Source: Candidatus Bartonella washoeensis Sb944nv (GTDB taxonomy: Bacteria; Pseudomonadota; Alphaproteobacteria; Rhizobiales; Rhizobiaceae). From it: a stretch of 64,000 nt of DNA. Both the position numbers and the translations under genes were made by a program. The DNA is taken from NCBI RefSeq assembly GCF_000278135.1, contig NZ_JH725025.1, positions 21,204 through 85,203 on the forward strand, written 5' to 3'. The notes below the pieces were generated by a model. The model did no database searches, was not told where the DNA came from, and saw nothing but the letters and a program-made list of their open reading frames with translations. This document shows, one piece after another, positions 11,042 to 30,484 of the stretch (position 1 is its first letter; each line of letters begins with the position of its first letter).

Positions 11042-11043
11042 TT

Positions 11044-11536: not shown

Positions 11537-14001
11537 TCGCATCCAATCTAGTATCATAGAAGAACGTTATTTTGATTGCCTCCAAGGGCAACAGCATCAA
11601 GTAAAACATCAAACAGGTTTTACAGGTCCCGTGCGACGTTTGCGCAGTTATTACACTTGTGAAGAGAAGACTTTGGCTTGTTGCCGTCTCAGAATCAGAT
11701 AGGCTCTGCCGTACTACCAGTAGTGGTTCTTTGACCTTACAAGGGCATACCGAAATCATGGCTGATTAACTTCTTTTTTTGCAAGGGTTTTGTAGAGAAA
11801 TCAATAGCTCTTGGAAAGTCGCAGCGTTGGCCCACCGCTATGAAAAAACAAGCGGATACAACTCAGAAATTATCCTAGAAGTGCCAGACAAGGAAAAAAA
11901 CTTTGTGAAAAAGGAAAATTAAAAGAGCAACCTGCACCTTTGATTGATCGTGATGCTCCCTGAGATAAAAATGCAATGTTTGCACTGTGGTTAGCGAAAG
12001 AGCAATAAGGTCAAGTTACCCTATTGCTGAAGAAAAGCAAAAATTCTTCTCTTTAGATAGGGGCTGGGCTGGTCCAGCCAACGGGGATATTTGGGAACAC
12101 ATCCGTCTGATGCAACTCAACTTGACATCGCAGCTACTTCTTATCACTTAAAGCAGTGAAAAGATGGATAATATAGATGAATAGAGTGTTAAAAAATGAT
12201 GGATATACTTTACGATGAAAAATTAAAATCTGTTGATCCAGTCACACCAGCTGCTGCTTATATTGGTGGCAAAAGCAGGTTAGCCAAAACTATTGTCAAA
12301 ATCATTGAAGATATCCCCCTCATAGCATTTACGCTGAACTTTTTATTGGCATGGGGGAATATTCTTTAGATGGGAATTGACCCCAACCTCTGAAATTATC
12401 AATGATCTTTTAAGAGATATGATGAATTTTTTTTCGGGTGTTGTAATGCCGCTAGCATCCTTTTATAGAATTGTTAGAGGTTCAGATTAGTAGCCGTGAG
12501 GAGTTTCAACGTTTAATACAGCAGGATCCAGAAAACCTAACGTATTTAGACGGGCTTCAAGGTTTTTATATTTAAAGCGATTAAGTTTTAGCGGGAAGGT
12601 ATCCAATTGTACGATGAGTGTTGAAATCGGACGTAGTGCGCGGTTTAATACTTTTAAACTTGAAGGCGTATTAAAACTTATTTACCCTTGTTTAGCAGGT
12701 GTTACTGTTGAACATTTAGGCTGGTCTGATTTTATTATGCGTTATGATCGTTCAAACACCTTGTTTTATCTTGAGTTGCCCTACTGGAGCATGAGGATTA
12801 TTACGGAAAGAATTTAAGCGGTAAGATTATCCGACGATGTCTAGGCTCCTTGCGCAACTAAAGGGAAAGTTTCTTCTGTCTTTAAATGATGTGACAGAAG
12901 TCTGAAAGACTTTTAGTCAATTCCATATAAAAAAGGTGAGAACAGTTTATTTGTGTAACTCTCCAAATAATATAATTGCTGTAAGGAACATTTCATCACC
13001 AATTGTGATATTTAGGAGAAGAGAAAAGACTGATTAAAGGGTCTTTAATGATCTTTCAAGATTCTTGAAGATCCCTTTAAAGATCATTTTAAAAAATGAA
13101 TTTGTACAAAACTTGCTGGCAAGCTACACTGATTTATTAGAAATGGCATTGTATTGAACCCCTTTGAGTTTAAAACCGCTACACTCACCATTGAATTTCA
13201 CTAAATAATTGCTCTGAAAACAACAACAAGAAAGTTTTATGTTGCAATGCTTTGTACTGGTTTGATTTCTGTTCTCGGTATATTCCTAATTACATTACTG
13301 AAAGTAATTTACGAATCTTGCGTTTGAATCCTTTTGGTGTTCATTGAAAACATGGTTAATTTTCAATTTCTTAGGTAGTTGTTTTCAGAAGCAGTCAATC
13401 CTTTTGATTTGATTATCTTTAACTTTAAAGTTTTATTTAATTTCTATGACGTTCAGTAAACTTAGCTCTTGTTTTGGTATCTTATCATTTCATTTTATAG
13501 ACTGTGCAGCGCTTGCAGTATCAGAATTTTTAATATTAGCATCACGAAAGGTGGATATCATTCCTTCTTTCAGTAAGGATATTTAATCTATTTCCCTAGC
13601 AAATTGCGAAGTAGTTTAGAATCTATAGTCGCGCTAGGATTTCCAAGGGGGCATTCGCCTTCGATATGCTAGCCAAACGCTTTTCAAAATTAAAAAATTA
13701 CAGCTGCAATATGATTAAATCCTTCTAACCACGGCAGTGAATCACATAATTATAAAATAAGCCAAATTTTTATAGGTAGCTAAATATTTATAATTATTAA
13801 AAATACTTAAAAATCTGCGTGAGACATAGTAAATATTTGTAATTAAATCATTTATTAAGAAAATAATTTACATAAATGCAAAAAATGAAATGATAAGTCA
13901 TATGCTATCATTGGCAGTTGTTTTTAATTAATAATGTATTGATTTATTTTTATATTAGTATATTGGCGATACCTTGAAACTTAGAGATAATAGGGGGGCA
14001 A
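11537..14001. other. Degenerate 2.5-kb region without intact genes
   Basis: No open frame of convincing length remains. Coding-like remnants include a rightward stretch at about 11900-12130 (PAPLIDRD, DKNAMFALWLAKEQ, RGWAGPANGDIWEH in broken frames) that I cannot assign, and the Dam methylase remnant listed separately. From about 12830 to 13990 I see only AT-rich DNA with short hairpins, for example around 13030-13090. It lies between the tail module and the metabolic operon, where P2-like sheath, fibre and baseplate genes would be expected. Confidence 0.6.
12196..12825 (+). pseudogene. D12-class DNA adenine methylase (Dam-like), multiply frameshifted
   Basis: The start reads DILYDEKLKSVDPVTPAAAYIGGKSRLAKTIV..IIEDIP, with the AdoMet-binding YIGGKSRLA motif of phage Dam-type methylases. 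Further pieces follow in shifting frames: AELFIGMG, FRWELTPTSEIINDLLRD, the ISSREEFQRLIQQDPENLT stretch and the C-terminal MSVEIGRSARFNTFKLEGVL. At least three indels and one stop interrupt it. Originally it would have modified GATC or a similar site in phage DNA. It is now non-functional. Confidence 0.7.
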
Positions 14002-15150
14002 TTGTTTAAGTCAGCACTTACTTACTATGAAAGGTCTGCTTTAACACAAGAAGCAAATCTTGCGGATGGTCATGCATATTACAATCTTCACGAGAGCTTT
14101 AATGATATTATTGTGGGATTAAAAGATAGTTGGGACTGGGCAAAATCACACAAAATACCTGAGATATAGGCGCGTTTCATTCAAAAATGGGGTGAGTTGT
14201 CAAAATCACCAACGATGGCGAAACATGCGGAATATCTCATTTGCCCGACAGCCTCTAATTCTATTGATATAGTAGGTGCATACTTAGCTTGCTCTCGAAA
14301 AAGGACTGCTCTCTTATTACCATGTTTTGATAATCTCCCTCTACTAATGAGAAGGCGCAACGTAAACTTAGTACCGCTCCTAGAAGATGATTTATTTATT
14401 TTCTCTTCAGATAAAGATGCACTTTCGAACTATTTTATTGAAAATAGTTTAGACGCTTTATTTATAGTAAATCCAAACAATCCTACAGGGATGATCTTTA
14501 ATGAAAACCAGCTTTCAAATATCGCTGACGTGTGTCGCGAGCGTACTGTCATACTGATTATTGATGCTACATTTAGTTTTTATGATCGTAAAAAACCAGA
14601 TTATCATAAGATATTGGATAGTTCAGGTGTTAAATATGTAATCATTGAAGATTCTGGTAAGACTTTTCCAACGCAAGATATGAAAGCTAGCTTAATGCTC
14701 TTCCATTCTGAGCTTAAAAGTGCAATACAACAAATTTACGAGGAAATATTTTTATGCGTGTCTCCCTTTATTTTGGAAGTAATCAGCAGAATTGTTGAGA
14801 AAGCATCCGAGATTGGATTAGAAGAAGTGCTATGGAAAGAAGTGGATGTTAGGCGTACTAATTTTCGTAATATATTAAATCAAACAAATTTAGAGATAGC
14901 AAAAAAATCTGTTGAATCGGCTATGCCGTTAGAGTGGATTGATTGCTCGGCGACAGGGTTTAGTGATCTTGAATTCGTGCAGCACTGCAAAGCTTTTGGC
15001 TTGTGTCTTTTGCCTGGTAGATATTTCTATTGGAGTAGGCCTGATGAATTAGGGCATCAATTTGTGAGGGCAAGTTTAATGAAGCAAGACAGTGTATTTG
15101 AATTGGCATTGCAGAGGTTACGTGAAGCTGTGTCCAGTGCTTGGAGATAG
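14002..15150 (+). pseudogene. PLP-dependent aminotransferase (fold type I) interrupted by an in-frame TAG; first gene of metabolic operon
   Basis: The C-terminal 317 residues (TTG 14197 onward) form a class I/II aminotransferase: CPTASNSIDIV, NPNNPTG (92-98), the aspartate in IIDATFSFY and the PLP lysine in EDSGKTFP (K155). The same frame continues upstream to a TTG at 14002 behind AGGGGGG and encodes ...TQEANLADGHAYYNLHESF...WAKSHKIPEI, which looks like the missing N-terminus. It is broken only by TAG at 14167-14169. Thus either one point mutation has inactivated the gene or a truncated enzyme starts at 14197. Its likely role is transamination of an amino-acid precursor for the pathway. The next gene starts 10 bases after its stop. 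Confidence 0.65.
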
Positions 15151-15160
15151 GGGGGTGAAT

Positions 15161-16585
15161 ATGCAAACATTAGGCTCTAACGTTGCTCAAGATATAGAAA
15201 GGTTTAAAATAGATTGGGCTTTCTTAAAGCCAGAATTACCTTGGCTTCAATATAAGGTACTGTCTAGATGGTCCTATACACGTGATATGCTAAAGTTAAA
15301 AGTGAGATCTAACGACGTTAGCCTGCGCAAATGGAAGCTTCAGAGATTAGGAGAATTAGTCGATTGGGCTTTTACATCAGTGCCTTTTTATCGTGATCTA
15401 TATAAAGAGATAGGCTATAGTGTAGGAGAAATTCGATCATATGATGATTTTACGCGACTGCCAATAATTTCACGAGAACATTTACCTTTTGTAGGAGATC
15501 TTAATTCATATCATTTGTCAAGTCACTTGCTCCATGACGAGCTGCGTGGACTTGAAACTACTGGGTCTACAGGTAAACCAGTACAAATAATGATGGATCA
15601 ATCACTCACTGAAATTGATACAATCCATCGCATGAATATGTTTGAAGAAATGTCGGGCAATCAACTTAATCCCAAAGAATGGATATATAATATTAATCAT
15701 GCTCATTGGTGGCATACTAATTTATGTGGGTTTTATAGAGTTTTTACGGTATCTCAACGTTGCCCGATAGAGTCAATCAAGCAGCATATTCAGCTGCTCA
15801 GACCTAAATTTATTTCTTCAATATTTAGTGCCGCAGAAAAATTAGCAGATTCTAATATAGATTTAGTGGGGCTGGGAGTCACTTGCTTGAGTACTAATTC
15901 TGAAACTTCGACTAGAACCCAACGGGATAAGTTAGAGGTTTCATTAAATGTAAAAGTTCGAGATGAGTACAGTAGTGAGGAAGTCGGTTTGATGGCATAT
16001 GAATGTACAGAAGGAAACTACCACTTCTTGGAGCATGACACGCATATTGAGCTGATTACTGATAGCGATAGTGATTTGGGCAGGATTGTTGGCACTTCAC
16101 TATGGAACATGGCTATGCCTATAATCCGCTATGATCAAGGTGACTTTGGGCAGTGGCATGGGCAAACAGCTGGAAGTAATAATGGTTGGGCTGGAGAAAA
16201 GTGTTGCTGTGGGTCATCCTATAGACGAATAAAAGCAATACATGGAAGAATAGACGATGCATTTATAAGTATAAGTAATAGATTAGTACCTTCAGGCATG
16301 ATGTTAGAAATTGCAGAAAAATGGTTGAGTCATGATGACGCTGGCATCATTGAATTTAGAGTAATACAAGAAGAAGTTAATAAGATACGAATTTTAACGA
16401 TTTGGAAAAGCGGTACGCCTTCCAACAAAGCGATGCAATGCATTAAGAACTTTACGAATGAAATGTGTTATCTTTTTCACTCAAAAATAGATATTGAGTT
16501 GGTCACTGTAGATCATATTCCTCCTTTGAATAAACTCAAAAGGCGTATATTCTTTAACAATATAAAAAAACAGCTTAATTTTTAG
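15161..16585 (+). CDS. PaaK-like adenylate-forming enzyme (phenylacetate-CoA ligase family)
   Basis: A 474-residue ANL-superfamily member starting at ATG 15161 behind AGGGGGTG. It has the nucleotide-binding TTGSTGKP loop (133-140), the DEYSSEEVGLMAYEC segment, IRYDQGDFGQ, the Cys-rich turn EKCCCGSSYRRIKAIHGRIDD typical of PaaK/CoF proteins, and a C-terminal lysine region LNKLKRRIFF. It should activate a carboxylate as an acyl-adenylate, handing it to CoA, a carrier or an amine. No carrier protein is encoded nearby, so direct transfer or CoA is more likely. Substrate unknown. It appears intact. Confidence 0.75.
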   Translation: MQTLGSNVAQDIERFKIDWAFLKPELPWLQYKVLSRWSYTRDMLKLKVRSNDVSLRKWKLQRLGELVDWAFTSVPFYRDLYKEIGYSVGEIRSYDDFTRLPIISREHLPFVGDLNSYHLSSHLLHDELRGLETTGSTGKPVQIMMDQSLTEIDTIHRMNMFEEMSGNQLNPKEWIYNINHAHWWHTNLCGFYRVFTVSQRCPIESIKQHIQLLRPKFISSIFSAAEKLADSNIDLVGLGVTCLSTNSETSTRTQRDKLEVSLNVKVRDEYSSEEVGLMAYECTEGNYHFLEHDTHIELITDSDSDLGRIVGTSLWNMAMPIIRYDQGDFGQWHGQTAGSNNGWAGEKCCCGSSYRRIKAIHGRIDDAFISISNRLVPSGMMLEIAEKWLSHDDAGIIEFRVIQEEVNKIRILTIWKSGTPSNKAMQCIKNFTNEMCYLFHSKIDIELVTVDHIPPLNKLKRRIFFNNIKKQLNF

Positions 16586-16595
16586 GGAAAATTCA

Positions 16596-17485
16596 ATGCA
16601 TTCATATATGATTGCGATTATCTATGACGAAATGCATCCTCTTCTAGAAAGAGTGCACGCTACGCTTATAAAAAAAACTTTAATACAGAGTTTATTCACT
16701 GGTCAGAAATCAGAATATTAGCAGCCCCAAACGAAGTTACCTCAAATCTTGATGAATTTGATGCTATTTTTATGGACCGCTTGGCAGAATTTAGGTGTTC
16801 TTATCACTCCCAATTTATACAGCTTGCAAATCTACCTTCAGTCAACGACGCGATAATTAACCAACCATTGTCTTATCAATTAGCTCGCGATAAAGCTCTT
16901 ACAGCAATCTACTTGGGTAAGCTTGGTTTTCCAATCCCAGAGACTCATATATTCCAAAGCTTAAACCAATTCAACGAGTTTCTATTAAATAAGGATATAG
17001 CTTTAGTGGCTAAATCAACATTGGGTTTTTGCTCGAATGAAGTACAGATATTTGCAGCAAAAAATCCACCTCTGGATGAAATAAAAAAATGGTTAAACCG
17101 TGATGGACAATTTATAATTCAGTTTCTCATTGAAAATCCGGGTAGATTTATTTGGCGATGCGATATTGTCAGCGGCGAAGTTAAGGTTTGTAATAAAAGG
17201 TATGCTTTTAATTCCGGTGGATTATACCCAATTTGCAATGGTACACATGGAGGACACATTGAGATTTTGCCTCCAGAAAAATTTGATAATCTCGCTACTG
17301 CTTTGGCTATTGATGCCGTTAAGGCTCTTGGGCTTGATATTGCAGGCGTAGATATAATAGAAGGGGCTGGGAGGAATTTTTACCTTATTGAAGTTAACCC
17401 AGAGCCAGACATTTTAATGGATCGATTTGAGTTTCCAGATGCGATTGTGGAACTGTTAATAAATAAAGCTCGAAAGGTAGCTTGA
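16596..17485 (+). pseudogene. RimK/GshB-like ATP-grasp ligase, split by a one-base slip at an A8 run
   Basis: ATG 16596 opens MHSYMIAIIYDEMHPLLERV up to a run of eight A (16670-16677); the frame then ends at KSEY. In the -1 frame the protein continues ...KKNFNTEFIHWSEIRILAAPNEV...FDAIFMDRLAEF and through an ATP-grasp domain: VAKSTLGFCSNEV, FIIQFLIENPGRFIWRCDIV and the metal-binding IDAVKALGLDIAGVDI / FYLIEVNPEPD. One extra A would restore a single protein of about 296 residues. It could be a decayed gene, a phase-variable gene, or one expressed by slippage on A-AAA-AAA. Its role would be amide or peptide bond formation. Its stop overlaps the ABC gene start. Confidence 0.65.
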
Positions 17486-18537
17486 TGGTTAAGATGAATA
17501 ATCAACAAACTCTAGTTGATGTAAGGGATATCTCAAAGGTTTACAAAAGTCAGAAAGCCTTCTGGGATTATTTTCTTCCCTCAAAGAGGCAAGAAAATAA
17601 TGATAAATATGCATTAAAAAACGTAACGCTTCAGTTAAAAGCTGGAGAGTGTTTAGGACTTTTGGGCCCAAATGGAGCAGGAAAATCCACATTAGTCAAA
17701 ACAATTTGCGGCTTACAAAAAGCTGATTGCGGCAAGGTTAGGGTGTTGGGTTCTTCCCCTTCACATCGCGATTATGATTTCTTAAGAAGAATCGGCGTTG
17801 TTTTTGGACATAAGTCTAGCCTATGGTGGGATCTGCCTGTTAAAGACAGTTATGCTGTATTACAGAAAATCTATGATATAGATCGCAAAAATTTCATGTT
17901 AAAGCTGGAAGAGCTTACGCAAGCTTTGGGTCTGTCTTCAATCCTTAATAGGAAGGTTCGAAATTTAAGCCTTGGGGAAAGGGTTAAATGTGAAGTTGTT
18001 GCCGCCCTTATTCATGACCCCGACTTACTGATATTAGATGAGCCGACTGTTGGGCTGGATATCCTATCCAAATATGAGTTGCGCAAATATCTTCACAGTC
18101 TTGTTAAGCAGCAAAATAAAGGAATTATCATAACAAGCCATGATATGGCGGATATAGAACATTGTGCTTCGAGGATTGTTTTTCTCAAGGAAAGTGAAAT
18201 TATTTTTGATGGTTCTGTTAGTACAGTATCAGAAAAAGTTGGCAATTTTGTAACAAGCTCACTTGTTGTACAAGAATGCCCACTTTCGGATGATTTTATT
18301 GAACAAGTCAAGGCAGCTGTTGATTATATTTCAACTCAAGGTGAAATAATTTCAAAAGCTATGACGCAATCGAAAATGGAATGGCTGATTGACGCAGATA
18401 TCAAAGATAAAATGTTTGAATGTTTACAAAAGCTTGTCATGGATCAGCCAAATATCTTAATTCAATTTTCTCCGCCTTCTCTTGAAGACATTTATTTAAA
18501 ACAATTTAAGGACAGTGGGAAGCAAGAATGCGTTTAA
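17485..18537 (+). CDS. ABC-2 type exporter, ATP-binding subunit
   Basis: A 350-residue ATPase starting at ATG 17485, sharing one base with the preceding stop. It has Walker A GPNGAGKST, Q-loop region RRIGVVFGHKSSLWWDLPV, signature LSLGERVKCE, Walker B DLLILDEPT and the switch His in ITSHD. The long N-terminal extension before the core and the wwDLPV segment resemble the ATPases that pair with DUF990-type permeases. It would energise export of the pathway product together with the two membrane proteins that follow. Intact, with a C-terminal regulatory-like domain of about 100 residues. Confidence 0.88.
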   Translation: MVKMNNQQTLVDVRDISKVYKSQKAFWDYFLPSKRQENNDKYALKNVTLQLKAGECLGLLGPNGAGKSTLVKTICGLQKADCGKVRVLGSSPSHRDYDFLRRIGVVFGHKSSLWWDLPVKDSYAVLQKIYDIDRKNFMLKLEELTQALGLSSILNRKVRNLSLGERVKCEVVAALIHDPDLLILDEPTVGLDILSKYELRKYLHSLVKQQNKGIIITSHDMADIEHCASRIVFLKESEIIFDGSVSTVSEKVGNFVTSSLVVQECPLSDDFIEQVKAAVDYISTQGEIISKAMTQSKMEWLIDADIKDKMFECLQKLVMDQPNILIQFSPPSLEDIYLKQFKDSGKQECV

Positions 18538-19365
18538 AACCTTTCCTGATGCTAAAGACAGTGCGGCTATATCTGGGTTGTGCAAAGCTATTCGCTTTTA
18601 TAGCCGTCAAGGAGATCCTTATTGATAAATATATGCTCATAATCGATCTATTATTGGCAACGAGTATTCCTTTTATCACGCAATATATTATTTGGAACTA
18701 TATTTACGCAGGCAATGCAGAGGAAAGTGTAAGCGGGTATAATTTTCAGCAATTAATGTTCTACTTTGCAATTTCTATAGCATTCTGGCGGCTTAACAAT
18801 TCTTACAGTGTGATTGAATATTTTGCACGAAACATTCAAGCTGGTGAACTCGAACCCCGTTTACTGTGGCCTATACCCATTCCGGTTCAAAGATTTTGGG
18901 ATTTTTTGGGTGGTGCTATTATCTATGCATGGCCAATTATTATCATTGTGGCTGTTTGTTTTTTTTTTCGAAGTCGAAACTATAAGCTTCTTCTATTGGT
19001 TCTGGACGATTATCTATATCATAGAGACACAAATATTGTGTTATTTAATTGGCCTTTTTATGGCGCTTAGCACATTTAAATTTGTTCGGCCTGATTTTCT
19101 TTTAGCGCTGTTATCTGCGCTGCAAGGCATATTAGGCGGGACCATGTTGCCCCCAAGCTTTTGGCCTGAAACTATAGCACCTATCATGTTTTATAATCCG
19201 TTCAGATTTATTATCGCCGCACCCGCTGAACTTATTATCGACCCCAATATTGATAATCTAATCTCATATTCTCTTCAGTTAAACTTGTATATGTTTGTAT
19301 TCATTGTTCTTTGTGCAATTTATTGGAAAGTTGTTATGACTAAATATGAAACAGCAGGAGGTTAA
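18528..19365 (+). pseudogene. ABC-2 permease (first subunit), split at a T10 run
   Basis: The first frame (ATG 18528, overlapping the ATPase end) encodes two or three membrane segments up to VAVCFFF; at the ten-T run 18959-18968 it leaves the coding frame and stops at 19070. The +1 frame carries on with FFFEVETISFFYWFWTIIYIIETQILCY, the LGGTMLPPSFWPETIAPIMFYNPFRFI motif typical of the family, and a final membrane helix. Nine T would give one continuous permease of about 278 residues. As written it is broken unless slippage during transcription or replication restores it. Partner of the ATPase and of the next permease. Confidence 0.7.
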
Positions 19366-19369
19366 AATT

Positions 19370-20140
19370 ATGGGAAAATTTCTACCTTATGTTTCAAATA
19401 GTTTGAAAAACTCTAGCGCCTATAAAGCCAATCTCGTGGGGTACATTGCCTTAACATTTATCGTGACCCTTATTAGATTATTATATGCTGATTCCATTTA
19501 TCAAAATACGAGCTCATTAAAAGGATGGACGCTAGAAGAATTTAACGGCCTTATTTTTTTTATGTTAGTGATATCATTATTACTAAACACTTTTGCTTCA
19601 TCGATAAATAATTTTTTTTATGCGCTTCTTTCAGGTAAATTAGAGCCGCTCTTAATGCAGCCAGTTCCTCTTGTTTATCATATGTTATTGCGATGGGCGA
19701 ATAATAATAACTTACTAATACTCTTTGGCTTACTGATTTTAAACGCATTGTATGTTAATATGCTCAAATTGGATTTCACTCTGCTGTCTATAACAATTAC
19801 TTTGTTGACAGTTTTTTTTACTGTCATTTCCAATCTGGCTTTTGTAACGTTTCTGCATTCTATTTCACTTTTAAGCCAAAAATATCTTCCTGTTGAATAT
19901 ATACATAGCGAGATGTTCAAACTCAATCTATTGCCACCGCATCTATTTGGCATGATGAGTTTGATAGCTATAATCTCTCTTGTGCCCTCATTGGTAGGTG
20001 CGGGTGTAACTGTAACGGCATTATTAAACCCATATTCAAGTTTAATATATTATTATTGGCTTTCAACTGTAATCTGTGTCATTATTGCTTGGCAATTCTT
20101 TAGAGTTTTAATGAAAAAACGGATTTCACTTGGCGGGTGA
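19370..20140 (+). CDS. ABC-2 permease (second subunit)
   Basis: A membrane protein of about 256 residues with some six hydrophobic segments (IALTFIVTLIRLLYA, FNGLIFFMLVISLLLNTFA, LLILFGLLILNALYV, LLSITITLLTVFFTVI, MMSLIAIISLVPSLVGAG, LIYYYWLSTVICVIIAWQFF). ATG 19370 is preferred because AGGAGG lies seven bases upstream. The ELFSGKLEP-like LLSGKLEPLLMQPVPL segment is shared with the first permease (IQAGELEPRLLWPIPI), as in two-permease exporters of this type. Intact. It overlaps the upstream frame slightly and the next gene follows within eight bases. Confidence 0.8.
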   Translation: MGKFLPYVSNSLKNSSAYKANLVGYIALTFIVTLIRLLYADSIYQNTSSLKGWTLEEFNGLIFFMLVISLLLNTFASSINNFFYALLSGKLEPLLMQPVPLVYHMLLRWANNNNLLILFGLLILNALYVNMLKLDFTLLSITITLLTVFFTVISNLAFVTFLHSISLLSQKYLPVEYIHSEMFKLNLLPPHLFGMMSLIAIISLVPSLVGAGVTVTALLNPYSSLIYYYWLSTVICVIIAWQFFRVLMKKRISLGG

Positions 20141-20147
20141 GGGGACT

Positions 20148-21470
20148 ATGGCAAAAACAAAAGGTTTAATTTTTCCAGTAATTCTCGTAACGAGCGAACG
20201 GATGAAGGCTGAAGTAGAAGATATCGTAAAGAGATATACTCATCTAATCGGCGAGTATATTATAATTCAAGAATGTTACAATCAAACTTCTAGCACACCT
20301 CAAAAAAACTGTATCCAGATTAGTGATATGGAAAATATTGAAGTTTTAAAGAGCTTAGCTGTTAAAATCACTGACAGCTTTAAGCCTACACACATTGTTG
20401 CTATGGAAGAGTTTGCAGTTTCAAGTGCGCATTATCTTGAAAATTTTTTCAAACTAGAGCCAAAGCTAAGCTTAGAGCAAATGCTAAGGTTCAGGAATAA
20501 GGCTATGATGGCGGAGCAAATCAGCAAAACCGGAAAACTTGTTCAACCTGTGCAATATACAAAAGAAGACGTATTCAATAACCGTACTACGTATCCGATT
20601 GTAATAAAACCCATAGATCAAGCAGCTTCAATTGGGGTCATGTTATGCAAAAATCAAAACGAAGCATTAAATGCTCTTAAAAAGATATCAGACCCTATAA
20701 TACAAGAATATATTAGTGATAACCTATATCATATTGATGTCTTGGTAGAAAATACTAAGTGCATTTTCTATTCTGTAGGATGTTACCAAGAAAATGCTGG
20801 TTATGGGGCTATTAATGGTGCTCCTCTGGTTTCTATAATTGAAACAGACAGACAAAAGCTGCTTCGGTGGAACGAGTTTATTACAGAAGCCATCGAAACT
20901 TTTAATCCTCCAAATGGCGCGCTTCATATTGAAGCGTTTTATCGTGATTCAAGTCCACACCTATTTCTAGAAATTGGGTTGCGTCCAGCAGGTGGTTTAA
21001 TTCCGATGATGATTAAAGCTTCTTCAGATATTGATATAATTGAAGGACATTTCTTACTTTCTATTGGTGTGAGTGTAGAAGAAAAATACGCTAAGCCTAG
21101 ATTAAAAGCTGCTTCATTAATTCACTTTCCCAAGCTACCGAATAATATTTCACAGATTAATGTTGAAAATATTTTTTTACCAGAAACAGGCTATAAATCT
21201 GAAGTTTATTATATGAAAACAGCTTCAGTAGGCGAAAGTGCTGCCGCTGAAATGAGCTACTCCAATACTCTAGCAGATATTGTTTTTACCTCAACAAACC
21301 GTCAATCTGTAGTAGCTGATACCCAGCATGCATTATGTAAATTTTCTGTAAATACCATTCATAAAGATTTCAATTTCAATGTAATGGTTAAAGCGGGTAT
21401 TGAGACAAGCGACGTATTATTTCAAATGCAGAAAGCCGCTTTAGAAGATGGGTTTATTTTACCTGGATGA
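20148..21470 (+). CDS. ATP-grasp ligase (carboxylate-amine ligase type)
   Basis: A protein of about 440 residues starting at ATG 20148 (GAGGGG upstream). It shows an N-terminal Rossmann-like half, then an ATP-grasp core: YPIVIKPIDQAASIGVMLCKNQNEAL, PIIQEYISDNLYHIDVLVEN, the ANGALHIEAFYRD-like strand GALHIEAFY and the metal site LFLEIGLRPAGGLI. The EIGLRPAGG motif is typical of ligases related to L-amino-acid ligases and carbamoyl phosphate synthase-like enzymes. It most likely joins a carboxylate to an amino group with ATP hydrolysis. Intact. Its stop overlaps the ATG of the next gene as ATGA. Confidence 0.78.
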   Translation: MAKTKGLIFPVILVTSERMKAEVEDIVKRYTHLIGEYIIIQECYNQTSSTPQKNCIQISDMENIEVLKSLAVKITDSFKPTHIVAMEEFAVSSAHYLENFFKLEPKLSLEQMLRFRNKAMMAEQISKTGKLVQPVQYTKEDVFNNRTTYPIVIKPIDQAASIGVMLCKNQNEALNALKKISDPIIQEYISDNLYHIDVLVENTKCIFYSVGCYQENAGYGAINGAPLVSIIETDRQKLLRWNEFITEAIETFNPPNGALHIEAFYRDSSPHLFLEIGLRPAGGLIPMMIKASSDIDIIEGHFLLSIGVSVEEKYAKPRLKAASLIHFPKLPNNISQINVENIFLPETGYKSEVYYMKTASVGESAAAEMSYSNTLADIVFTSTNRQSVVADTQHALCKFSVNTIHKDFNFNVMVKAGIETSDVLFQMQKAALEDGFILPG

Positions 21471-22642
21471 AAATTATTGGCATCCTCGTTTATTTTCGAA
21501 AAACATCAGACTCAAGCTCTAGCACGTGATTTCTACTATCTATATAAGATGATATTTTCTTTAAAGGATAAGCTATTTTCAGGAAGTCAAAAACAGTGGT
21601 TTAAAAATTTAGGATTAAGTGACCAGTTAATTTCTGTATTGCAGAGATTCAAGATACAAGGTGATTGTATCCCATACCGTTGGGACTTTTTTATTTCAGG
21701 TAAATTTCAGGTAATCAGATAAAAGTGATTGAATTGAATGCTGGCTTAGCTCTAGGGGGCATATGCCAAAAGAAGCTTCAAGAGCTGAAAAATATTCTAG
21801 ATTGCAACAGTAACGAAACTTGGGTTCATCCTTTATTTGGATTGGCAGACTATCTAAAAAAATACATCCATAAACTTAAAGTAAATAGAATTCTCATTAT
21901 TGAGGATGATGATTACTATATACATGAACCTGAAGCAACTCGGTGGGTTATGAATGGATTACAGCATTGCGGAATCGAAAAAATAGAGGTCATTACAGCA
22001 GCTAAATTGCAGAGTATTTCTGTTGATGAACCTGTTATCGCTCTTGAACTATTTTCTTATATTGATGTGGATCGAAATGTAGATAGATATAAAACCTATT
22101 TTGCACTGATAAAAGAAAAATTTCTTTATCCGACAATTTCACCTCTATCCGAAATTCTAATGAATAAAATGAACTTAGCTTTGATCTATAAAGCTTTAAA
22201 TAGAGGATTACTGTCACCTGAAGAGCGCATTTTAGTTGATAAGTATATTCCTAAGACATTCGTTCTGGATAATAATACTATGGAAATTATCCTTACGATG
22301 AACAAAAACAATTATGTAATGAAACCTTCTATTGGGTGTGGGGGGAGAGGAGTTGTAGTAGGAAGAGATGTTTCTGAAGAAATATGGCGACAAAAGATTG
22401 AAGATATACTTGTAAGTGAAGAAAAATACATTGTTCAAAGTTTCGTTGAGAGTAATAAATACGATGTTACGATAGTTGATAAAGATAAAAAAAACAGCAA
22501 AGAATATTCCAATGTCGTATTTGGCTTATATATGTTCAATGAAAAATTTTGTGGGGGTCTAGTCCGTGCTGGGAATGGTGGGCATATTATCAACGTACAA
22601 ACTGGCAGTGCTTTAGGTATATTAAGAGTCAATGCTTTTTAA
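21467..22642 (+). pseudogene. Glutathionylspermidine-synthase-like ATP-grasp protein with two frameshifts
   Basis: The ATG at 21467 (ATGA overlap) opens MKIIGILVYF, then the frame is lost; removing one T near 21489-21492 would link it to EKHQTQALARDFYYLYKMIF...IPYRWDFFISG. That frame is broken by a perfect 11-bp tandem duplication (21693-21714). Without it the protein would run FISGNQIKVIELNAGLALGG and on through IIEDDDYYIHEPEA, YVMKPSIGCGGRGVVVGRD, YIVQSFVES and GLYMFNEKFCGGLVRAG, a circularly permuted ATP-grasp pattern like Gsp synthase C-terminal domains. It would be about 385 residues if restored. Role: a second or third ligation step in the pathway. Confidence 0.65.
21693..21714 (+). repeat. 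Perfect 11-bp tandem duplication disrupting an ATP-grasp gene
   Basis: ATTTCAGGTAA occurs twice back to back (21693-21703 and 21704-21714). Deleting one unit restores an uninterrupted ATP-grasp frame with the family motif VIELNAG, so the duplication is the lesion. Confidence 0.85.
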
Positions 22643-22683
22643 TAGAGAGAATAAAATTATTTCAAATAGAGGTTATTAATTTA

Positions 22684-23664
22684 ATGACTGATAATGAATT
22701 AGAAGAATTAGAACGGATCCACCTTATAGCCATAAAGCCGCATTTAAAAGAGCTGTCGGAACGAAAATCGTATAAAGGTTTAGGGCGTTTATTGATTATG
22801 GTTTTTGTTTACCTAACTGTTCTATTGCTCGCAATTAAATTTGATAGCATCTACACTTGGATTTTTGCAGACGTACTTCTGGGCCTTCTATTTTCGGGTT
22901 TGTTTTCAGTTATGCATTATTGTGGTCATGGCACGTTGCTTGCCAGCAGAAAATTAAATCGTATTTTGGGAACGCTTTTTTCAATGCCTATATTAATGAA
23001 TTTTTCATTATATAAGTTTTTTCACTTTGTGCATCATCAAAGAACATCTCAACTAGGGGATACAGAACCAAAAGGAGAGCTTAATTCTTTTCCGAGCTAT
23101 TTTTTGGCTTTATCAAATCTAGATTTTATCTACGGCTTTTTCAGATTATCTATTGCAAGTTTATTCAACTATCGTTCATTCTTTATTAAGAATAGGAAAC
23201 AGCTTAACCATGTGAAGCTGGATACGATATTTCTTCTAGGATGGATAGTTTTTATTGCATTTGTAACTTTCTATTATCCAAAGTTCAGCTTAATGGGATA
23301 TTGGTTGCCGTTGCAAATTGGCTTATCATTTAACTTTTATACATCTTTTGCTGAGCACTATGAATGTAGCTTGAGTAAAAATAAATTATCAAATACACGA
23401 ACGGTTTATCTTAAGAGTAGGATTCTAAAATATTTTCTTTTTAACAGCAACTATCATGCAGAACACCATTTTTTACCATCGGTACCGCCGTGGAATTTAC
23501 CTAAAGTCAATTTTTATATAAAGGAAAGCTTGCAGCATACGCAGAAATCATATTATCAGATACACAAGGAACAACTTAAAAAAATTGTTAACAGGCAGCA
23601 ACGACCCGCTGAAACAAATGATGGTTTCGTAAAAAATTTTAATTTCAAGCTTGAAAAGCTTTAA
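22684..23664 (+). CDS. Membrane fatty-acid desaturase family protein
   Basis: A 326-residue di-iron membrane enzyme starting at ATG 22684 behind AGAGGTT. All three histidine boxes are present: HYCGH (HX3H), HFVHHQ (HX2HH) and HAEHHF (HX2HH), with hydrophobic segments between them (LLIMVFVYLTVLLLAI, IFADVLLGLLFSGLFS, FLLGWIVFIAFVTFYY). It could desaturate or hydroxylate an acyl chain or the pathway intermediate. From memory, the phaseolotoxin cluster of Pseudomonas also carries a desaturase beside ATP-grasp ligases, which is a useful parallel only. It is the last tightly coupled gene of the operon and appears intact. Confidence 0.82.
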   Translation: MTDNELEELERIHLIAIKPHLKELSERKSYKGLGRLLIMVFVYLTVLLLAIKFDSIYTWIFADVLLGLLFSGLFSVMHYCGHGTLLASRKLNRILGTLFSMPILMNFSLYKFFHFVHHQRTSQLGDTEPKGELNSFPSYFLALSNLDFIYGFFRLSIASLFNYRSFFIKNRKQLNHVKLDTIFLLGWIVFIAFVTFYYPKFSLMGYWLPLQIGLSFNFYTSFAEHYECSLSKNKLSNTRTVYLKSRILKYFLFNSNYHAEHHFLPSVPPWNLPKVNFYIKESLQHTQKSYYQIHKEQLKKIVNRQQRPAETNDGFVKNFNFKLEKL

Positions 23665-24134
23665 ATAGCTTAACTATGAGCACTTAAAATAGTAGATTCT
23701 ATAATGCAAGGGGGAATTCCGTAATGACATCAGGATATATGACACAAAGTATGGGATTATTAGAACCGCATAGTTATCAGGTCGAGAAGGTAAATAGTGT
23801 GGTGTTTTGAAGGGAAACCAATTGGTTGTCCACGTTGTATTGGCGAGCTAGGATGTGAGCTGCGGTATCCGTTATCGCGACATGGGTATTTGGGAAGGAG
23901 TATTGGAAATACTTATTAATCCCCTCAACTATTAGTGACAGCATGTTAATGCAAGCCATTATAAGATTTTATCCGGATAATATCTTGGATTAGAGTGATT
24001 ATAAGAGAAACTGTCCTCATAGCTCATTGATATATAAAATTTTTGATGAATGTGTAAAAAGATTTACTATTTCTGAAGGCGAGCTGTGAAGAGGACAGAT
24101 CAGTGAAATTGAACTAATAGAACGAAAATTCATC
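23665..24134 (+). other. Intergenic stretch with a degraded coding remnant
   Basis: No intact gene. A GGGGGAATTCCGTAATG start-like site near 23710 opens MTSGYMTQSMGLLEPHSYQ, which stops after about 35 codons; broken frames at 23770-23930 look formerly coding but I cannot assign them. The downstream dehydrogenase probably has its own promoter here. Confidence 0.35.
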
Positions 24135-25112
24135 ATGAAAAAATCTTCTCGTAATTATAGACAACGCTTGTTGTTGGCTACAGGTGCTTTACCGTCTCTG
24201 AAAAACCATCTTGTGCAATTGCAGACCGCAGGTTTTCAGATCATTCATATAGAAAATCCTAAGAATTTTGAAGAAATACGCGCTTATTTTCCGGATGTGA
24301 CCCACTATATCTTAGGAGGACCAGAATATATTGGTCACCGAGAGTTATCCAAATTGAGCAAGCTAGAACATTTGGTGCTTCTAGGCACAGGTATTCCGAG
24401 CTTTGTGAATGAAGAGGCGATTCGCAATACAGGTATTCGACTATCAAACACACCCCATATGAATTGCAACGGGGTAGCCGAATATGCACTTTCCATGTTG
24501 ATTAGCTCTCTTGCAGGTACCTTCAACAGTTATGCACAAATGCGGAATGGTTCGGCTTGGTGGCAAAAGCCCAGAAAAGAGCTCTCGGAAAGCCGAATTG
24601 GCATCTTAGGACTTGGAGAGATCGGTTCTCTTCTTGCCCGAAAGATACGTCTCATTTCAGAAGCGAAGATTCTCTATGTCAGCCGAAGTTCAAAACCTAC
24701 GCTTGAGAAAGAACTCAGCCTTATGCAATCCGATCTCAAAGGTCTCGTTTCAACTTGTGATGCTTTGGTTATGTGTATTCCTTTCAATAATTCGACCAAA
24801 GGAATCATCAATCGGGTTAATCTGGCGTACGCGAATCCGAAGTTATCTATACTTTGTTTTTCCAATCCGAGAACAGTTGTAGCTGCAGATATTAAAGAGC
24901 TGCTTAAGGCTGGCAGTTTAAGTTTTTTTTATATGGATGGATATTATCAAGAGTGGGAAAACAATAAAGGTATAACTGATGATCCTCAAGGGCTTCTGTC
25001 ACTTGGTCCGGATCAATTTTATGCCACATCTCATATTGCCGCTCAAACAGAAAAGGCGATAGAGATTCAATTGAATCGTGCGATTTTTCTTATATTGGAT
25101 GGGGTACAATAA
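24135..25112 (+). CDS. D-isomer-specific 2-hydroxyacid dehydrogenase family protein
   Basis: A 325-residue NAD(P)-dependent dehydrogenase. It has the N-terminal substrate domain (THYILGGPEYIGHRELSKLSKLEHLVLLGTGI), then the Rossmann motif RIGILGLGEIGSLLARKI, the VMCIPFNNSTKGIINRVNLAY segment and the substrate-binding Arg in FSNPRTVV. The catalytic His is in TSHIAAQT. Members reduce 2-keto acids or oxidise 2-hydroxy acids such as phosphoglycerate. It follows the desaturase by 470 bp on the same strand and may supply a 2-keto or 2-hydroxy acid to the pathway. The last 20 residues are normal; it seems intact. Confidence 0.8.
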   Translation: MKKSSRNYRQRLLLATGALPSLKNHLVQLQTAGFQIIHIENPKNFEEIRAYFPDVTHYILGGPEYIGHRELSKLSKLEHLVLLGTGIPSFVNEEAIRNTGIRLSNTPHMNCNGVAEYALSMLISSLAGTFNSYAQMRNGSAWWQKPRKELSESRIGILGLGEIGSLLARKIRLISEAKILYVSRSSKPTLEKELSLMQSDLKGLVSTCDALVMCIPFNNSTKGIINRVNLAYANPKLSILCFSNPRTVVAADIKELLKAGSLSFFYMDGYYQEWENNKGITDDPQGLLSLGPDQFYATSHIAAQTEKAIEIQLNRAIFLILDGVQ

Positions 25113-25234
25113 TGTAAAGTTGTGATTTAAGTTCTAGCCTTCTACCTTCCTTTTAAATTAATTATTTTAAGTAGGAATGTGCTAATTATGATTATAATAA
25201 GGTGGCGAGGAGAAAATTCTATCAGGTTGAGGAT

Positions 25235-25585
25235 GAGTTTAAGAATAGCCTATACAACCAGCTTCAGCAGCTCATCGTTGTACCAGCTCTTTAGAGACCT
25301 TATGTCTACCCGCCCAGATTGTAGCTGAAAGATGCCAATGCATCGGGTTGGAGATCTGTCAGCGGCGCATTAATCAGCTGTAGCAAGCACGTGCTGCAAT
25401 CATCACATCTTGCCGCAACAACTCTTCGGCCTGTTTTTATCAATACTCATTGAAAATACCTCATCATCTTTGACGACATGATCGCAACCGATGGTGGGAT
25501 AGCCTGCCGGACAAAAATAAAAGGTTCGATAAAACCCCTCTAACCGTTTAATCATGTTTAGTCCGTTTTGTGTGATATGTCTCAT
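25235..25585 (-). pseudogene. Second phage lysozyme, degraded
   Basis: The start MRHITQNGLNMIKRLEGFYRTFYFCPAGYPTIGCDHVV is a GH24 lysozyme N-terminus with the catalytic Glu and the PTIG.DH motif. The frame shifts soon after; pieces such as LTDLQPDALASFSYNLGG and LVQR*AAEAG follow, with the region between them deleted. It is unrelated in detail to the intact endolysin at 4764-5426, so the prophage once had a second lysis module here. Confidence 0.7.
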
Positions 25586-25607
25586 TTTTCCAGTGTCTCT
25601 ATAATTT

Positions 25608-25874
25608 TCAGCTTCTTGCTGCCGTATTCAAACACGCTATGCCATTGCTCTTTCCTGAGGATTTTCTAGGCTCAATCATCAACGTAAAAAGGTTAATTCT
25701 GTATTGCTTAGCAGTGACATAATCTTTAAGCTCATACCAAGCCTTGTGAGCTAGCGTGATATCCATTTTCTTGACCGTATATTCAAAAGCATTCAGCAGC
25801 GCTTTCAGCTCTGCATCGGTGCATTTTTCGTTTTGAAGGTTCTCAATTATGGCTTTGTAAAATAGTTTGCTCAT
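25608..25874 (-). CDS. Hypothetical phage protein
   Basis: An 88-residue protein (MSKLFYKAIIENLQNEKCTDAELKALLNAFEYTVKKMDITLAHKAWYELKDY...) with helical character and no recognised family. It lies between the broken lysozyme and the broken holin, so it belonged to the same lysis region. The last residues (SNGIACLNTAARS) look out of frame, which suggests a frameshifted C-terminus. Confidence 0.4.
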   Translation of the reverse strand: MSKLFYKAIIENLQNEKCTDAELKALLNAFEYTVKKMDITLAHKAWYELKDYVTAKQYRINLFTLMIEPRKSSGKSNGIACLNTAARS

Positions 25875-25959
25875 GGCGTTATCTCATTGTTTTCAATTGC
25901 TTTTACAATTACAGTAACGTTTTATTCTGGGCGCTTATCAAGTGAATAAAATCATGTTT

Positions 25960-26500
25960 TTCAAGGATTTGAGCGTAATTTTGTTAAGGCACGCTGACCA
26001 AAACAGAAAGACATCACAGAAGCAAACAACGTTTGTGTTACAACGTCTCATACAGCGATCAGTCCGTCACAAATGCCTATACCCTGATCCAATGGCTTGA
26101 AGAGAGAAGTGGGTTTTAACGATAGCGAAGAGAATGAAAAATGCATAGGTAAAATAACCGGAAGCATCGAGGCACGCAAAGCCTCTACGCATTTTATACC
26201 GCTGGGCTAACTAGCATGAGCATAGAGTGCTTTGCTTTCAGCAACATCAGCCTGAATCTATATTTCTTCAAGGCGTTGTGTATGGCCTTGGTGTTGCGCT
26301 TCCATTTGTAGATCCAGAATAGTCAGCTCATGTTTACGGTTGGTATGGTCACGACAGAGTTTCAGAAAATTTTGGAACGCGGATGATAAAAAGCTCAACA
26401 GGTTTCCAAGTAATGATTGAGCCTGCAAATCATGCAGAATGCGGATGTCATTAGCAGCTTTTTCATCTGCTAAGCCAACTTCCTTTAGTTTTTTTTGTCT
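25960..26500 (-). pseudogene. 3TM-type phage holin, degraded
   Basis: Leftward fragments read LLGNLLSFLSSAFQNFLKL, CRDHTNRKHELTILDLQMEAQHQGHTQRLEEI, IQADVAESKALYAHAS, CVEALRASMLPVI and further pieces that resemble the three-membrane-span holin family (normally ...VEALRASVRPVITYAF...). They are interrupted by stops and frameshifts. Together with the lysozyme remnant this marks the relic of a second lysis cassette next to terminase. Confidence 0.5.
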
Positions 26501-26521
26501 TACCTCAGTAGACAGCTTACT

Positions 26522-27160
26522 CTAGCAGAGACTTAAATTCTGTTCACGGGCAGGTACATCTGCAATCATCACCGGATCACCTTCATTATCCATACTGATA
26601 GGATAGGCATCAACCTCATCCAAAATCAGATAACGAATAGGCATGGAACGTAAACCAGCAGCATTGTTGGCTCCTGTAAGTATCAATGCTCTACCATCAA
26701 ATTCTTTCGAAAACATTGTATTGCCGCTGTCTCGTGCGTGGGCAGGGGCAATGCGTTCGCTTAAAGCAGGGCTAGCTGAAATCATCGGATCAAGACGAGA
26801 CTTTGACAGTTTCTTAGCGGTCTCAACTGTCGGCATCACATAAAGTGCCGGTCCTGGACTATGATGAATGGCATAACCACAAAAGTTCAACGCTGCTTCC
26901 GACATTCCAACCTGTGCCCCTTTCATGACAATGGTTGTTTCAGTCGGATCATAAACAGAAAGATTATCCATGATCTCTCGTAAATAGGGGGTACGTATAG
27001 TCCTCCATAATCCAGGCTCAGCACTCGTGACTGTACTCAAATAACGATTTTTATCAGCCCACTCGGAAACAGTATAAGGCGGGTCAGGACGGCGTCCTTC
27101 ATTCGCATAGCAAAAAAAGAGTCCAGCACCAGAGGATGGGGGAGAAGCATCATTTGTCAT
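26522..27160 (-). pseudogene. Terminase large subunit (GpA family), truncated
   Basis: The N-terminal 200 residues are well conserved: PPYTVSEWADKNRYLSTVTSAEPGLWRT..PYLREIMD, the ATPase loop MKGAQVGMSEA, VMPTVETAKKLSKSRLDPMI and the Walker B strand RYLILDEVDAYP. The protein then runs into DVPAREQNLSLC and stops, so roughly the C-terminal two thirds, with the nuclease domain, are missing compared with a typical GpA of about 600 residues. It overlaps the small subunit gene by 11 bases. DNA packaging cannot work with this gene alone. Confidence 0.8.
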
Positions 27161-27755
27161 GTTCTGGATTCTCTTCTAAAATGTTGGGATCGTGAAAAGA
27201 AACAGGGACGACATTTTCCATTAAAGCTTTGCGCATATGATGATCGATAGCTCCAATAAGGCTCGCAGCATCACATCCCACTTGCGCCGCAATTTCAGCA
27301 CCAAAGCGATAGGCAAAATTGAGCATTGTATCTCGATGCGCTCTTCCAAAGTTCCATGCTTCTTTTCTTACTTCTTCACGATCAACAGTTGTTTCGCGTA
27401 ACTTTTCCAGAGCAATCTTTTCTTTTGCTAGCGCAACTTGCATTCGCTCCAGTTTTATCTTGTATTCGTTGGCTCCATCTGTCGAGGCTTGTTTGATCTT
27501 TGTCCGCCGTTGTCCATCAGATGCTAAAAGTGGGGCAGGGCGCTTTGTAGGATTCTCATTCCAGATGGCTGTGGCAAGGGTTTCATTGACAGAACCATCT
27601 TCAAAAAGAGCCGCATCAAATTTACCTGTCTTAAATCGTGAAACCACCGCATTAGGAGAGACACACATCTTTTTCGCAAATGCACGAACCGAGAGACCAT
27701 GCCGATGCTTCTTATTCATTTCCATCTCTTTTGCTAAATATTTTTCAACATTCAT
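27150..27755 (-). CDS. Terminase small subunit-like DNA packaging protein
   Basis: A protein of up to 201 residues with an N-terminal helix-turn-helix (HGLSVRAFAKKMCVSPNAVVSRFKTGKF) followed by a long helical segment (YKIKLERMQVALAKEKIALEKLRETTVDREEV) and a C-terminal domain, the layout of Nu1/small terminase proteins. It overlaps the large subunit start. ATG at 27719 (MNKKHRHG) is an alternative start. It probably bound the phage packaging site; now orphaned by the truncation of its partner. Confidence 0.6.
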   Translation of the reverse strand: MNVEKYLAKEMEMNKKHRHGLSVRAFAKKMCVSPNAVVSRFKTGKFDAALFEDGSVNETLATAIWNENPTKRPAPLLASDGQRRTKIKQASTDGANEYKIKLERMQVALAKEKIALEKLRETTVDREEVRKEAWNFGRAHRDTMLNFAYRFGAEIAAQVGCDAASLIGAIDHHMRKALMENVVPVSFHDPNILEENPEHDK

Positions 27756-27770
27756 CTTTTTTTTAGATTG

Positions 27771-27787
27771 GTATCATGATATGATAC
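27771..27787 (+). promoter_or_regulatory. Palindrome upstream of higBA, probable operator
   Basis: GTATCAT-GAT-ATGATAC is a perfect 7-bp inverted repeat with a 3-bp centre, 27 bp before the higB start and just behind the divergent small terminase gene. HigA antitoxins bind such palindromes. Confidence 0.55.
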
Positions 27788-27813
27788 ACAAAAGAGCGAA
27801 TGAAGGTGATTTG

Positions 27814-28095: not shown

Positions 28096-28111
28096 TCTGT
28101 AGGAGGTCGAG

Positions 28112-28405: not shown

Positions 28406-28520
28406 TGATCTTTCCACTCAGGAGATTTTCGAGGTAACAGATAATTGACGGTCCGGTATAATCGGGTATATATTCCGGTATGCAAGTGGATACACTTCAA
28501 GTCACACAAGAATTATTGGT

Positions 28521-29062: not shown

Positions 29063-29088
29063 TTGAAGGGAGGGAGGGAGTTTTAAAC

Positions 29089-30098: not shown

Positions 30099-30127
30099 AA
30101 GAACTCCTGTTGGTTAGATGTTTTTGA

Positions 30128-30464: not shown

Positions 30465-30484
30465 GTCAATTTGAAAATTCTGTC

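What the first reader, a model, noticed from the sequence alone, without database searches (positions are those of the whole stretch)
14002..25112. Rightward metabolic operon replaces the head/baseplate region of a P2-like prophage
Seen: nine same-strand genes, most overlapping or within about 45 bp: aminotransferase, PaaK-like adenylating enzyme, three ATP-grasp proteins, an ABC ATPase with two permeases, a desaturase, and then a 2-hydroxyacid dehydrogenase. They stand between tail and terminase genes, where head, baseplate, sheath and fibre genes would be expected. Known: ATP-grasp ligases with an adenylating enzyme and an exporter can make small peptides without an NRPS. Inference: a previously undescribed exported peptide-like or acylated compound, mobile with a phage relic. 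I know of no such cluster described in Bartonella.
Basis: partly seen in the sequence, partly recalled or inferred. Interest (0 to 1): 0.8.

Follow-up and report, generated by a model that had tools for sequence, protein, structure and literature searches.

The report
Decaying arginine-compound cluster inside Bartonella prophage
A virus remnant in a Bartonella genome carries a set of genes that once probably built and exported a small compound made from arginine, related to part of the pathway for the antibiotic indolmycin; here several of the genes are broken, but a related, apparently whole set sits on a plasmid of another Bartonella.

Summary
The rightward gene run is real (14002-25112) and sits between tail and terminase genes of an incomplete prophage. 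First, it is broken: 4 of 9 genes carry stops or frameshifts, and two of the 'three' ATP-grasp proteins look like pieces of one gene. Second, it can be placed: the 'aminotransferase' belongs to the PLP-dependent arginine-oxidase family, its nearest solved relative being the enzyme of the Pseudoalteromonas luteoviolacea indolmycin locus; the last gene is nearest to dehydrogenases beside such enzymes there and in Pseudomonas; the adenylating enzyme is PaaK-like. Inferred: a non-NRPS pathway in which oxidised (probably 4,5-dehydro) arginine is coupled by adenylating and ATP-grasp ligases and exported by an ABC transporter. Of 71 Bartonella genomes searched, 4 hold this type, each broken or truncated in its own way, yet dN/dS is mostly below 0.3, so it was selected until recently. 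Two others (B. doshiae; B. kosoyi plasmid pTLV-1) hold a second type with open frames, related to actinobacterial clusters. It is not an indolmycin cluster: one TrpRS in 6 of 6 carriers, and no genes seen for the tryptophan-derived half. The product is unknown.

The parts
14002..15150 (+). PLP-dependent arginine-oxidase family gene (Ind4/MppP/RohP kin), cut by an in-frame stop at 14167-14169
15161..16585 (+). PaaK-like adenylating enzyme, 474 aa, open
16596..17485 (+). RimK-like ATP-grasp ligase, frameshifted near its start
17482..18537 (+). ABC transporter ATPase, 351 aa, open
18528..19365 (+). ABC permease 1, frameshifted (two overlapping frames)
19346..20140 (+). ABC permease 2 (ABC2_membrane_6), open
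20130..22642 (+). long ATP-grasp gene with two ATP-grasp parts (20130-21470 and about 21471-22642), cut by an in-frame stop and a frameshift
22684..23664 (+). membrane desaturase/hydroxylase fold, open; best NCBIfam model GntB (L-Arg hydroxylase) but far below its cut-off
24135..25112 (+). 2-hydroxyacid-dehydrogenase-fold reductase, 325 aa, open; nearest to the dehydrogenases of the indolmycin locus and of Pseudomonas loci
4764..11451 (-). prophage tail genes, tape measure, endolysin
26522..27755 (-). terminase large (short, 212 aa) and small subunits
638..1795 (+). prophage integrase
421..39422 (.). possible extent of the prophage: 16-bp direct repeat at 421 and 39407, the second at the edge of tRNA-Thr (39409-39484)

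Best explanation
It is a recently decayed, prophage-borne biosynthetic gene cluster of the arginine-oxidase / PaaK-like-ligase / ATP-grasp kind. Working copies most likely did the following (inferred from relatives, not shown). The PLP enzyme used O2 to oxidise L-arginine, probably to a 4,5-dehydro-2-imino (or 2-keto) arginine. The dehydrogenase-fold enzyme reduced this to a dehydro-D-arginine. The PaaK-like enzyme activated a carboxylic acid as adenylate and joined it to that amino acid. The RimK-like and long ATP-grasp ligases added further residues. The membrane desaturase-fold enzyme oxidised or hydroxylated the product, and the ABC transporter exported it. Shown here: gene content, sequence kinship, lesions, and a past excess of synonymous over non-synonymous change. 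In this genome the first step, two ligase genes and one exporter subunit are broken, so the product is probably not made now.
For: PLP enzyme: PDB 7n79 at 250.7 bits, 5dj1 (MppP) 137.2, 6c3a (RohP by recall; the PDB table says 'Uncharacterized protein') 129.8. The 366 residues of 7n79 printed lie unchanged in ORF L020:9980-11125 of P. luteoviolacea HI1; a TrpRS of that genome has coordinates inside the same locus. Mansson 2016 places an aminotransferase and a TrpRS in the indolmycin cluster of this species (PMC5069768, passages). Both family motifs are there: NLADGHAY before the stop, EDSGKTFPTQDMK after it. In the tree the window row falls with the 7n79 enzyme, apart from MppP and RohP (99/99). 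Dehydrogenase: 38% and 217 bits to the one next to the 7n79 gene, 40% to Pseudomonas ones, against 57.8 bits for the best PDB match. Similar gene sets: PLP-RimK-ABC-permease-permease-DH in a Bdellovibrionales contig, and PLP-DH with PaaK-like and ABC-permease-permease in 3 Pseudomonas. Selection: dN/dS 0.06-0.27 in 24 of 24 segment-by-pair comparisons, 0.07-0.46 in 7 against G235. Decay: lesions differ among the copies.
Against: No activity was tested; arginine is inferred from relatives at about 28-40% identity. The window PLP row is a long branch with no starred group of its own. The PaaK-like enzyme is only 26% identical to that of the indolmycin locus. The right half (long ATP-grasp gene, desaturase) matched no arginine-oxidase locus outside Bartonella at E 1e-5, so it may do separate chemistry. 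dN/dS rests on pieces, in some cases on few differences; three of the 7 comparisons with G235 exceed 0.3 (0.34, 0.38, 0.46); dS varies from 0.02 to 0.40 between segments of one pair, so recombination disturbs it.
Confidence: 0.7

Rival explanations
1. As above, but the PLP enzyme is a hydroxylase (MppP/RohP type) and the product carries hydroxy- or cyclic arginine (enduracididine-like), the membrane desaturase acting as a GntB-like arginine hydroxylase.
For: NCBIfam's best models are MppP (153.6 bits) and, for the desaturase, GntB (71.4 bits). The enzyme of the indolmycin locus itself also has MppP as its best NCBIfam model (149.1 bits), so this score does not part the two kinds.
Against: Both scores are far below the curated cut-offs (450 and 380). 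The PDB comparison and the tree favour the 7n79 side. A dehydrogenase partner fits the indolmycin-type route (recalled).
Confidence: 0.2
2. A generic peptide or acyl-amino-acid cluster in which the PLP enzyme is an ordinary aminotransferase and the dehydrogenase makes a 2-hydroxy acid.
For: Pfam names are generic.
Against: Both oxidase-family motifs are present, and the PDB ranking puts the arginine-oxidase family (250.7 to 129.8 bits) far above the next entry (36.1 bits).
Confidence: 0.08
3. The lesions are sequencing or assembly errors and the cluster works in this strain.
For: Raw reads are not available here; the three window lesions compared with G057 and 220B are absent from both, and the stop compared with G235 is absent there.
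Against: Five lesions in one 11-kb stretch, while the region at 39.7-64 kb gives many long frames; each of the other 3 copies is also broken or truncated, at other places.
Confidence: 0.08

Closest known systems
Indolmycin cluster (Pseudoalteromonas luteoviolacea, locus L020; Streptomyces griseus ind genes, recalled)
   Same: PLP arginine oxidase next to a dehydrogenase-fold reductase, plus a PaaK-like adenylating enzyme.
   Different: No aromatic aminotransferase, methyltransferase or TrpRS was seen among the window's cluster genes; the window adds RimK-like and long ATP-grasp ligases, a membrane desaturase and an ABC exporter; carriers have a single TrpRS.
Pseudomonas loci L024-L026 (P. psychrophila HA-4, P. 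sp. TH41, P. sp. PB120)
   Same: PLP oxidase, dehydrogenase, PaaK-like enzyme, ABC ATPase and two permeases, all related to the window's.
   Different: No match to the window's ATP-grasp or desaturase proteins at E 1e-5; besides, a second PLP enzyme (2 of 3), a further ABC protein (2 of 3) and an FAD oxidase relative (1 of 3). Product unknown to me.
Second Bartonella type: B. doshiae (L011/L013) and B. kosoyi plasmid pTLV-1 (L008/L012), with Actinopolyspora xinjiangensis (L022), an actinobacterial MAG (L015) and, in part, Streptomyces sp. NRRL S-31 (L014)
   Same: PLP oxidase, dehydrogenase, PaaK-like and ATP-grasp enzymes.
   Different: FAD oxidase, 465-aa protein without Pfam match, MATE exporter and enolase-superfamily protein; frames open; PLP 38-39% identical to the window's. 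In L014 no match to the ATP-grasp, 465-aa and enolase proteins.
MppP (mannopeptimycin) and RohP (azomycin) arginine hydroxylases
   Same: Same enzyme family and motifs.
   Different: 28-30% identity; on the other side of a 99/99 branch.

Membership tests
Indolmycin biosynthesis | PLP-dependent arginine oxidase nearest to the indolmycin-locus enzyme | tested here: met
   best of the solved structures; similarity only. Among unsolved relatives it is no nearer to it (38.9%) than to several others (39.6% at most)
Indolmycin biosynthesis | Partner dehydrogenase-fold reductase | tested here: met
   38%, 217 bits to L020's; similarity only
Indolmycin biosynthesis | PaaK-like condensing enzyme (role recalled from Du 2015, not held) | tested here: inconclusive
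   26%, 135 bits to L020's
Indolmycin biosynthesis | Genes for the tryptophan-derived acid (aromatic aminotransferase, C-methyltransferase) | tested here: not met
   none among the family matches of the genes at 14002-25112; not searched for by family elsewhere in the genome
Indolmycin biosynthesis | Extra, resistant TrpRS | tested here: not met
   one TrpRS in 6 of 6 Bartonella carriers; 4 matches in the P. luteoviolacea genome, 3 over the cut-off
MppP (TIGR04462) | Score over the curated cut-off of 450 bits | tested here: not met
   153.6 bits for the piece after the stop
GntB L-arginine hydroxylase (NF041365) | Score over the curated cut-off of 380 bits | tested here: not met
   71.4 bits
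Arginine-oxidase family (Ind4/MppP/RohP) | N-terminal NxADGHAY-type motif and EDxGKxxPTxDxK (motifs as seen in the rows) | tested here: met
   both present, parted by the stop
Arginine-oxidase family (Ind4/MppP/RohP) | O2-dependent oxidation of L-arginine | not testable with these tools
   needs an enzyme assay
P2-like prophage | Tail and terminase genes | tested here: met
   the name P2 is recalled, PHROG gives functions only
P2-like prophage | Contractile-tail sheath gene | tested here: not met
   no PF04984 match in the genome at E 0.001: defective or otherwise built

The most novel reading that the evidence does not exclude
Bartonella has twice taken up mobile non-NRPS pathways, one with a prophage and one with a plasmid, that make different exported dehydro-arginine peptides. 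Such arginine mimics would act on rival bacteria in the arthropod gut or on host arginine metabolism; selection kept the prophage type in several species until it was recently and repeatedly lost.
Probability: 0.3. Interest if true: 0.8.

Novelty: new variant of a known kind. Interest (0 to 1): 0.58.

Why it matters
Bartonella, with its small genome, is not known to me for specialised metabolites, and the listings I saw showed none. An arginine-oxidase cluster carried by a prophage, with a cousin of open frames on a B. kosoyi plasmid, gives named, assayable enzymes and a testable metabolite. It also shows a biosynthetic cluster caught during loss, with signs of past selection and fresh, different lesions in four genomes. 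Because no NRPS or PKS gene was seen in these clusters, standard mining may miss them; [quoted passage not shown]

Tried and rejected
Considered and rejected: an ordinary aminotransferase (PDB ranking and motifs); an indolmycin cluster proper (missing genes, single TrpRS); a cargo common in viruses (the viral-contig scan with the PLP alignment gave 6 loci, all with partial, weak matches; the PaaK-like protein matched 4 phage records at 22-24%). Led nowhere: plasmid search with the second ATP-grasp part (no match); with the first part and the desaturase only weak matches (58 and 264 records, the listed ones below 31% identity); the PLP family is on 2 plasmid records, pTLV-1 and a Streptomyces one at 26.5%. 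RimK relatives at E 1e-30 in 143 genomes of the Bdellovibrionales MAG's class: only the MAG itself. First ATP-grasp part at E 1e-10 in 151 genomes of the family: own genome only, but these were drawn from a larger group and cannot have included G235, which holds it. Desaturase in 17 genomes holding PLP relatives: 2 of 17, weak, linkage not checked. Own-genome paralogue of the dehydrogenase as tree outgroup: none at E 1e-5, so no dehydrogenase tree was built. The small ORFs in the 470-bp gap were listed and not explained.
Full report
What is there. The window lies in a 1.97-Mb genome in 11 contigs. It is of the genus Bartonella: genomes of its own genus include contigs with the lengths and loci of B. 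doshiae NCTC 12862 (165,876 bases), B. kosoyi plasmid pTLV-1 (41,483) and Bartonella sp. 220B (16,802). From 14002 to 25112 the + strand carries nine genes: PLP enzyme, PaaK-like adenylating enzyme, RimK-like ATP-grasp ligase, ABC ATPase, two permeases, a long ATP-grasp gene, a membrane desaturase-fold enzyme and a 2-hydroxyacid-dehydrogenase-fold enzyme. The phage genes next to it on both sides are on the minus strand: tail, tape measure and endolysin genes to the left, terminase to the right. An integrase (638-1795), a tRNA-Thr (39409-39484) and a 16-bp direct repeat at 421 and 39407 suggest a prophage of about 39 kb. The same scan also gave repeats of 17 and 15 bp nearby; I chose the 16-bp one because it lies at the tRNA edge and because in G235 the two ends of the window's prophage meet at just these 16 positions, though not with the exact 16-mer.

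It is broken. The PLP frame is cut at 14167-14169. The RimK-like gene and permease 1 are frameshifted. The long ATP-grasp gene has a stop at 21468-21470 and a frameshift further on. So 4 of 9 genes are broken; PaaK-like, ATPase, permease 2, desaturase and dehydrogenase are open. In G235 the frame of the first ATP-grasp part continues into the second for 557 aa in all before it too breaks. The 'three ATP-grasp proteins' are therefore probably two genes, though no full-length intact copy of the long one was seen.

Other copies. A search with the adenylating enzyme of the 71 Bartonella genomes held found matches in 6. Four have the window's type: this genome, Bartonella sp. 220B (G002), G057 and G235. 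220B keeps PaaK-like, RimK-like, ATPase and both permease frames open, has a broken PLP gene and a truncated ATP-grasp gene, and no match to the rest on its 16.8-kb contig. G057 keeps only the RimK-like frame whole and has no match to the genes after permease 2 in the 20-kb stretch. G235 has fragments of the PaaK-like gene, open RimK-like, ATPase and permease frames, a truncated ATP-grasp gene, and no matching PLP, desaturase or dehydrogenase gene in the 32 kb fetched. The three window lesions compared (stop in the PLP gene; shifts in the RimK-like gene and permease 1) are absent in G057 and 220B, and the stop in the ATP-grasp gene is absent in G235. Intact copies of several genes thus exist among relatives.

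Past selection. On ungapped codons in the window's frame, dN/dS is 0.06-0.27 in 24 of 24 comparisons (8 segments, 3 pairs) and 0.07-0.46 in 7 segments against G235, where the three values above 0.3 rest on 24, 16 and 3 differences. dS varies from 0.02 to 0.40 between segments of one pair (window and 220B), which points to recombination between copies. The reading is long use, then recent and separate loss.

What the enzymes are. The PLP piece after the stop matches PDB 7n79 at 250.7 bits, MppP (5dj1) at 137.2 and 6c3a at 129.8; the next, a lyase, is at 36.1. The PDB table calls 7n79 'Aminotran_1_2 domain-containing protein' and 6c3a 'Uncharacterized protein'; that they are the indolmycin arginine desaturase Plu4 and the hydroxylase RohP is recalled. 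For 7n79 it is borne out in part: its 366 printed residues lie unchanged in an ORF of P. luteoviolacea HI1, and a TrpRS match of that genome has coordinates within the same locus. PMC5069768 (passages) describes an aminotransferase and a TrpRS in the indolmycin cluster of this species. PMC7497351 (passages) says that MppP and RohP hydroxylate and deaminate L-arginine with O2, whereas Ind4 forms a C=C bond. A tree of 20 rows puts the window on the 7n79 side of a 99/99 branch against MppP plus RohP. Within that side its place is unresolved, its branch is long, and the other 17 rows of that side, the 7n79 gene included, came through searches with my own queries. Left out of the tree were the broken 220B copy, the second copy of the B. 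doshiae locus, and five weak loci. The window's dehydrogenase is 38% identical (217 bits) to the one beside the 7n79 gene and 40% to Pseudomonas ones; its best PDB match has 57.8 bits. The adenylating enzyme is about 31% identical to those of B. doshiae and Pseudomonas and 26% to the indolmycin-locus one. That the latter condenses an acid with dehydroarginine is recalled from Du 2015, which is not held.

Second type. B. doshiae and B. kosoyi pTLV-1 carry PLP oxidase, dehydrogenase, FAD oxidase, a 465-aa protein without Pfam match, MATE exporter, ATP-grasp, PaaK-like and enolase-superfamily genes, with open frames. The shared block of about 11.4 kb is 94% identical. Relatives of the eight proteins at 35-53% identity, by protein, are in Actinopolyspora xinjiangensis and an actinobacterial MAG; Streptomyces sp. 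NRRL S-31 has relatives of five of the eight.

Reach of the family. The genome-contig scan with the PLP alignment gave 22 loci. Five of them (L030-L034) match only short stretches weakly and were left out of the printed table and of the tree. Of the 17 others, 2 are Bartonella; 8 (P. luteoviolacea, Pseudomonas L024-L026, the Bdellovibrionales contig L021, and actinobacterial L014, L015, L022) carry a dehydrogenase relative next to or near the PLP gene; 7 (L016-L019, L023, L027, L029) do not. The scan used two short peptide patterns, so it is not exhaustive.

Against indolmycin itself: the 6 Bartonella carriers have one TrpRS each, while the P. luteoviolacea genome has 4 matches, 3 over the cut-off. 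Other genomes with such loci have one (Actinopolyspora, Pseudomonas PB120) or two (Streptomyces NRRL S-31). No gene for the tryptophan-derived half was seen among the window's cluster genes.

Literature. Searches for Bartonella with biosynthetic gene clusters, indolmycin, arginine oxidases, B. kosoyi plasmids and Bartonella P2-like prophages listed no paper whose title or shown start of abstract describes such a cluster in Bartonella. Several listings were cut (for example 20 of 4,632 papers, 12 of 20). Beyond listings I saw passages only: PMC7497351, PMC5069768, PMC5025454, PMC10367076 on GntC and GntB and PMC9414547 on B. harrusi and plasmids. Most subscription papers are not held, so this is weak evidence of absence.

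Noticed in passing
L008 12281-24352 (pTLV-1) and L013 4822-16952 (B. doshiae): The 11.4-kb cluster block is shared at 94%, and the stretch that borders it on one side in the plasmid lies on its other side in B. doshiae, as if a circle had inserted.
   Followed up: partly
L010 16617-17210 and window 38891-39485: The same prophage end borders tRNA-Thr in the window but tRNA-Phe in G057: kin prophages seem to use different tRNA genes.
   Followed up: partly
window 27319-28405: HigB-like toxin gene and a helix-turn-helix gene behind it on the + strand (the second just below its Pfam cut-off); the listed start of the first overlaps the terminase small subunit on the other strand and is probably too far upstream.
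   Followed up: no
window 38409-39032: YqaJ-type viral recombinase near the tRNA end.
   Followed up: no
window 23724-23919: Short open frames, one of 28 codons behind a purine-rich stretch that could bind ribosomes, in the gap before the dehydrogenase; possibly remains of a lost gene.
   Followed up: partly
L041 10649-12915 (Rhizobium leguminosarum WSM1689 plasmid): A desaturase related to the window's (27.5%) lies next to an annotated PGM1-related peptide ligase, near three annotated 2OG-Fe oxygenases.
   Followed up: no
L016, L017, L018, L023, L027: Arginine-oxidase family genes in Obscuribacterales, Bdellovibrionaceae and proteobacterial MAGs without matches to the dehydrogenase or PaaK-like proteins in the stretch: perhaps other pathways.
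   Followed up: no
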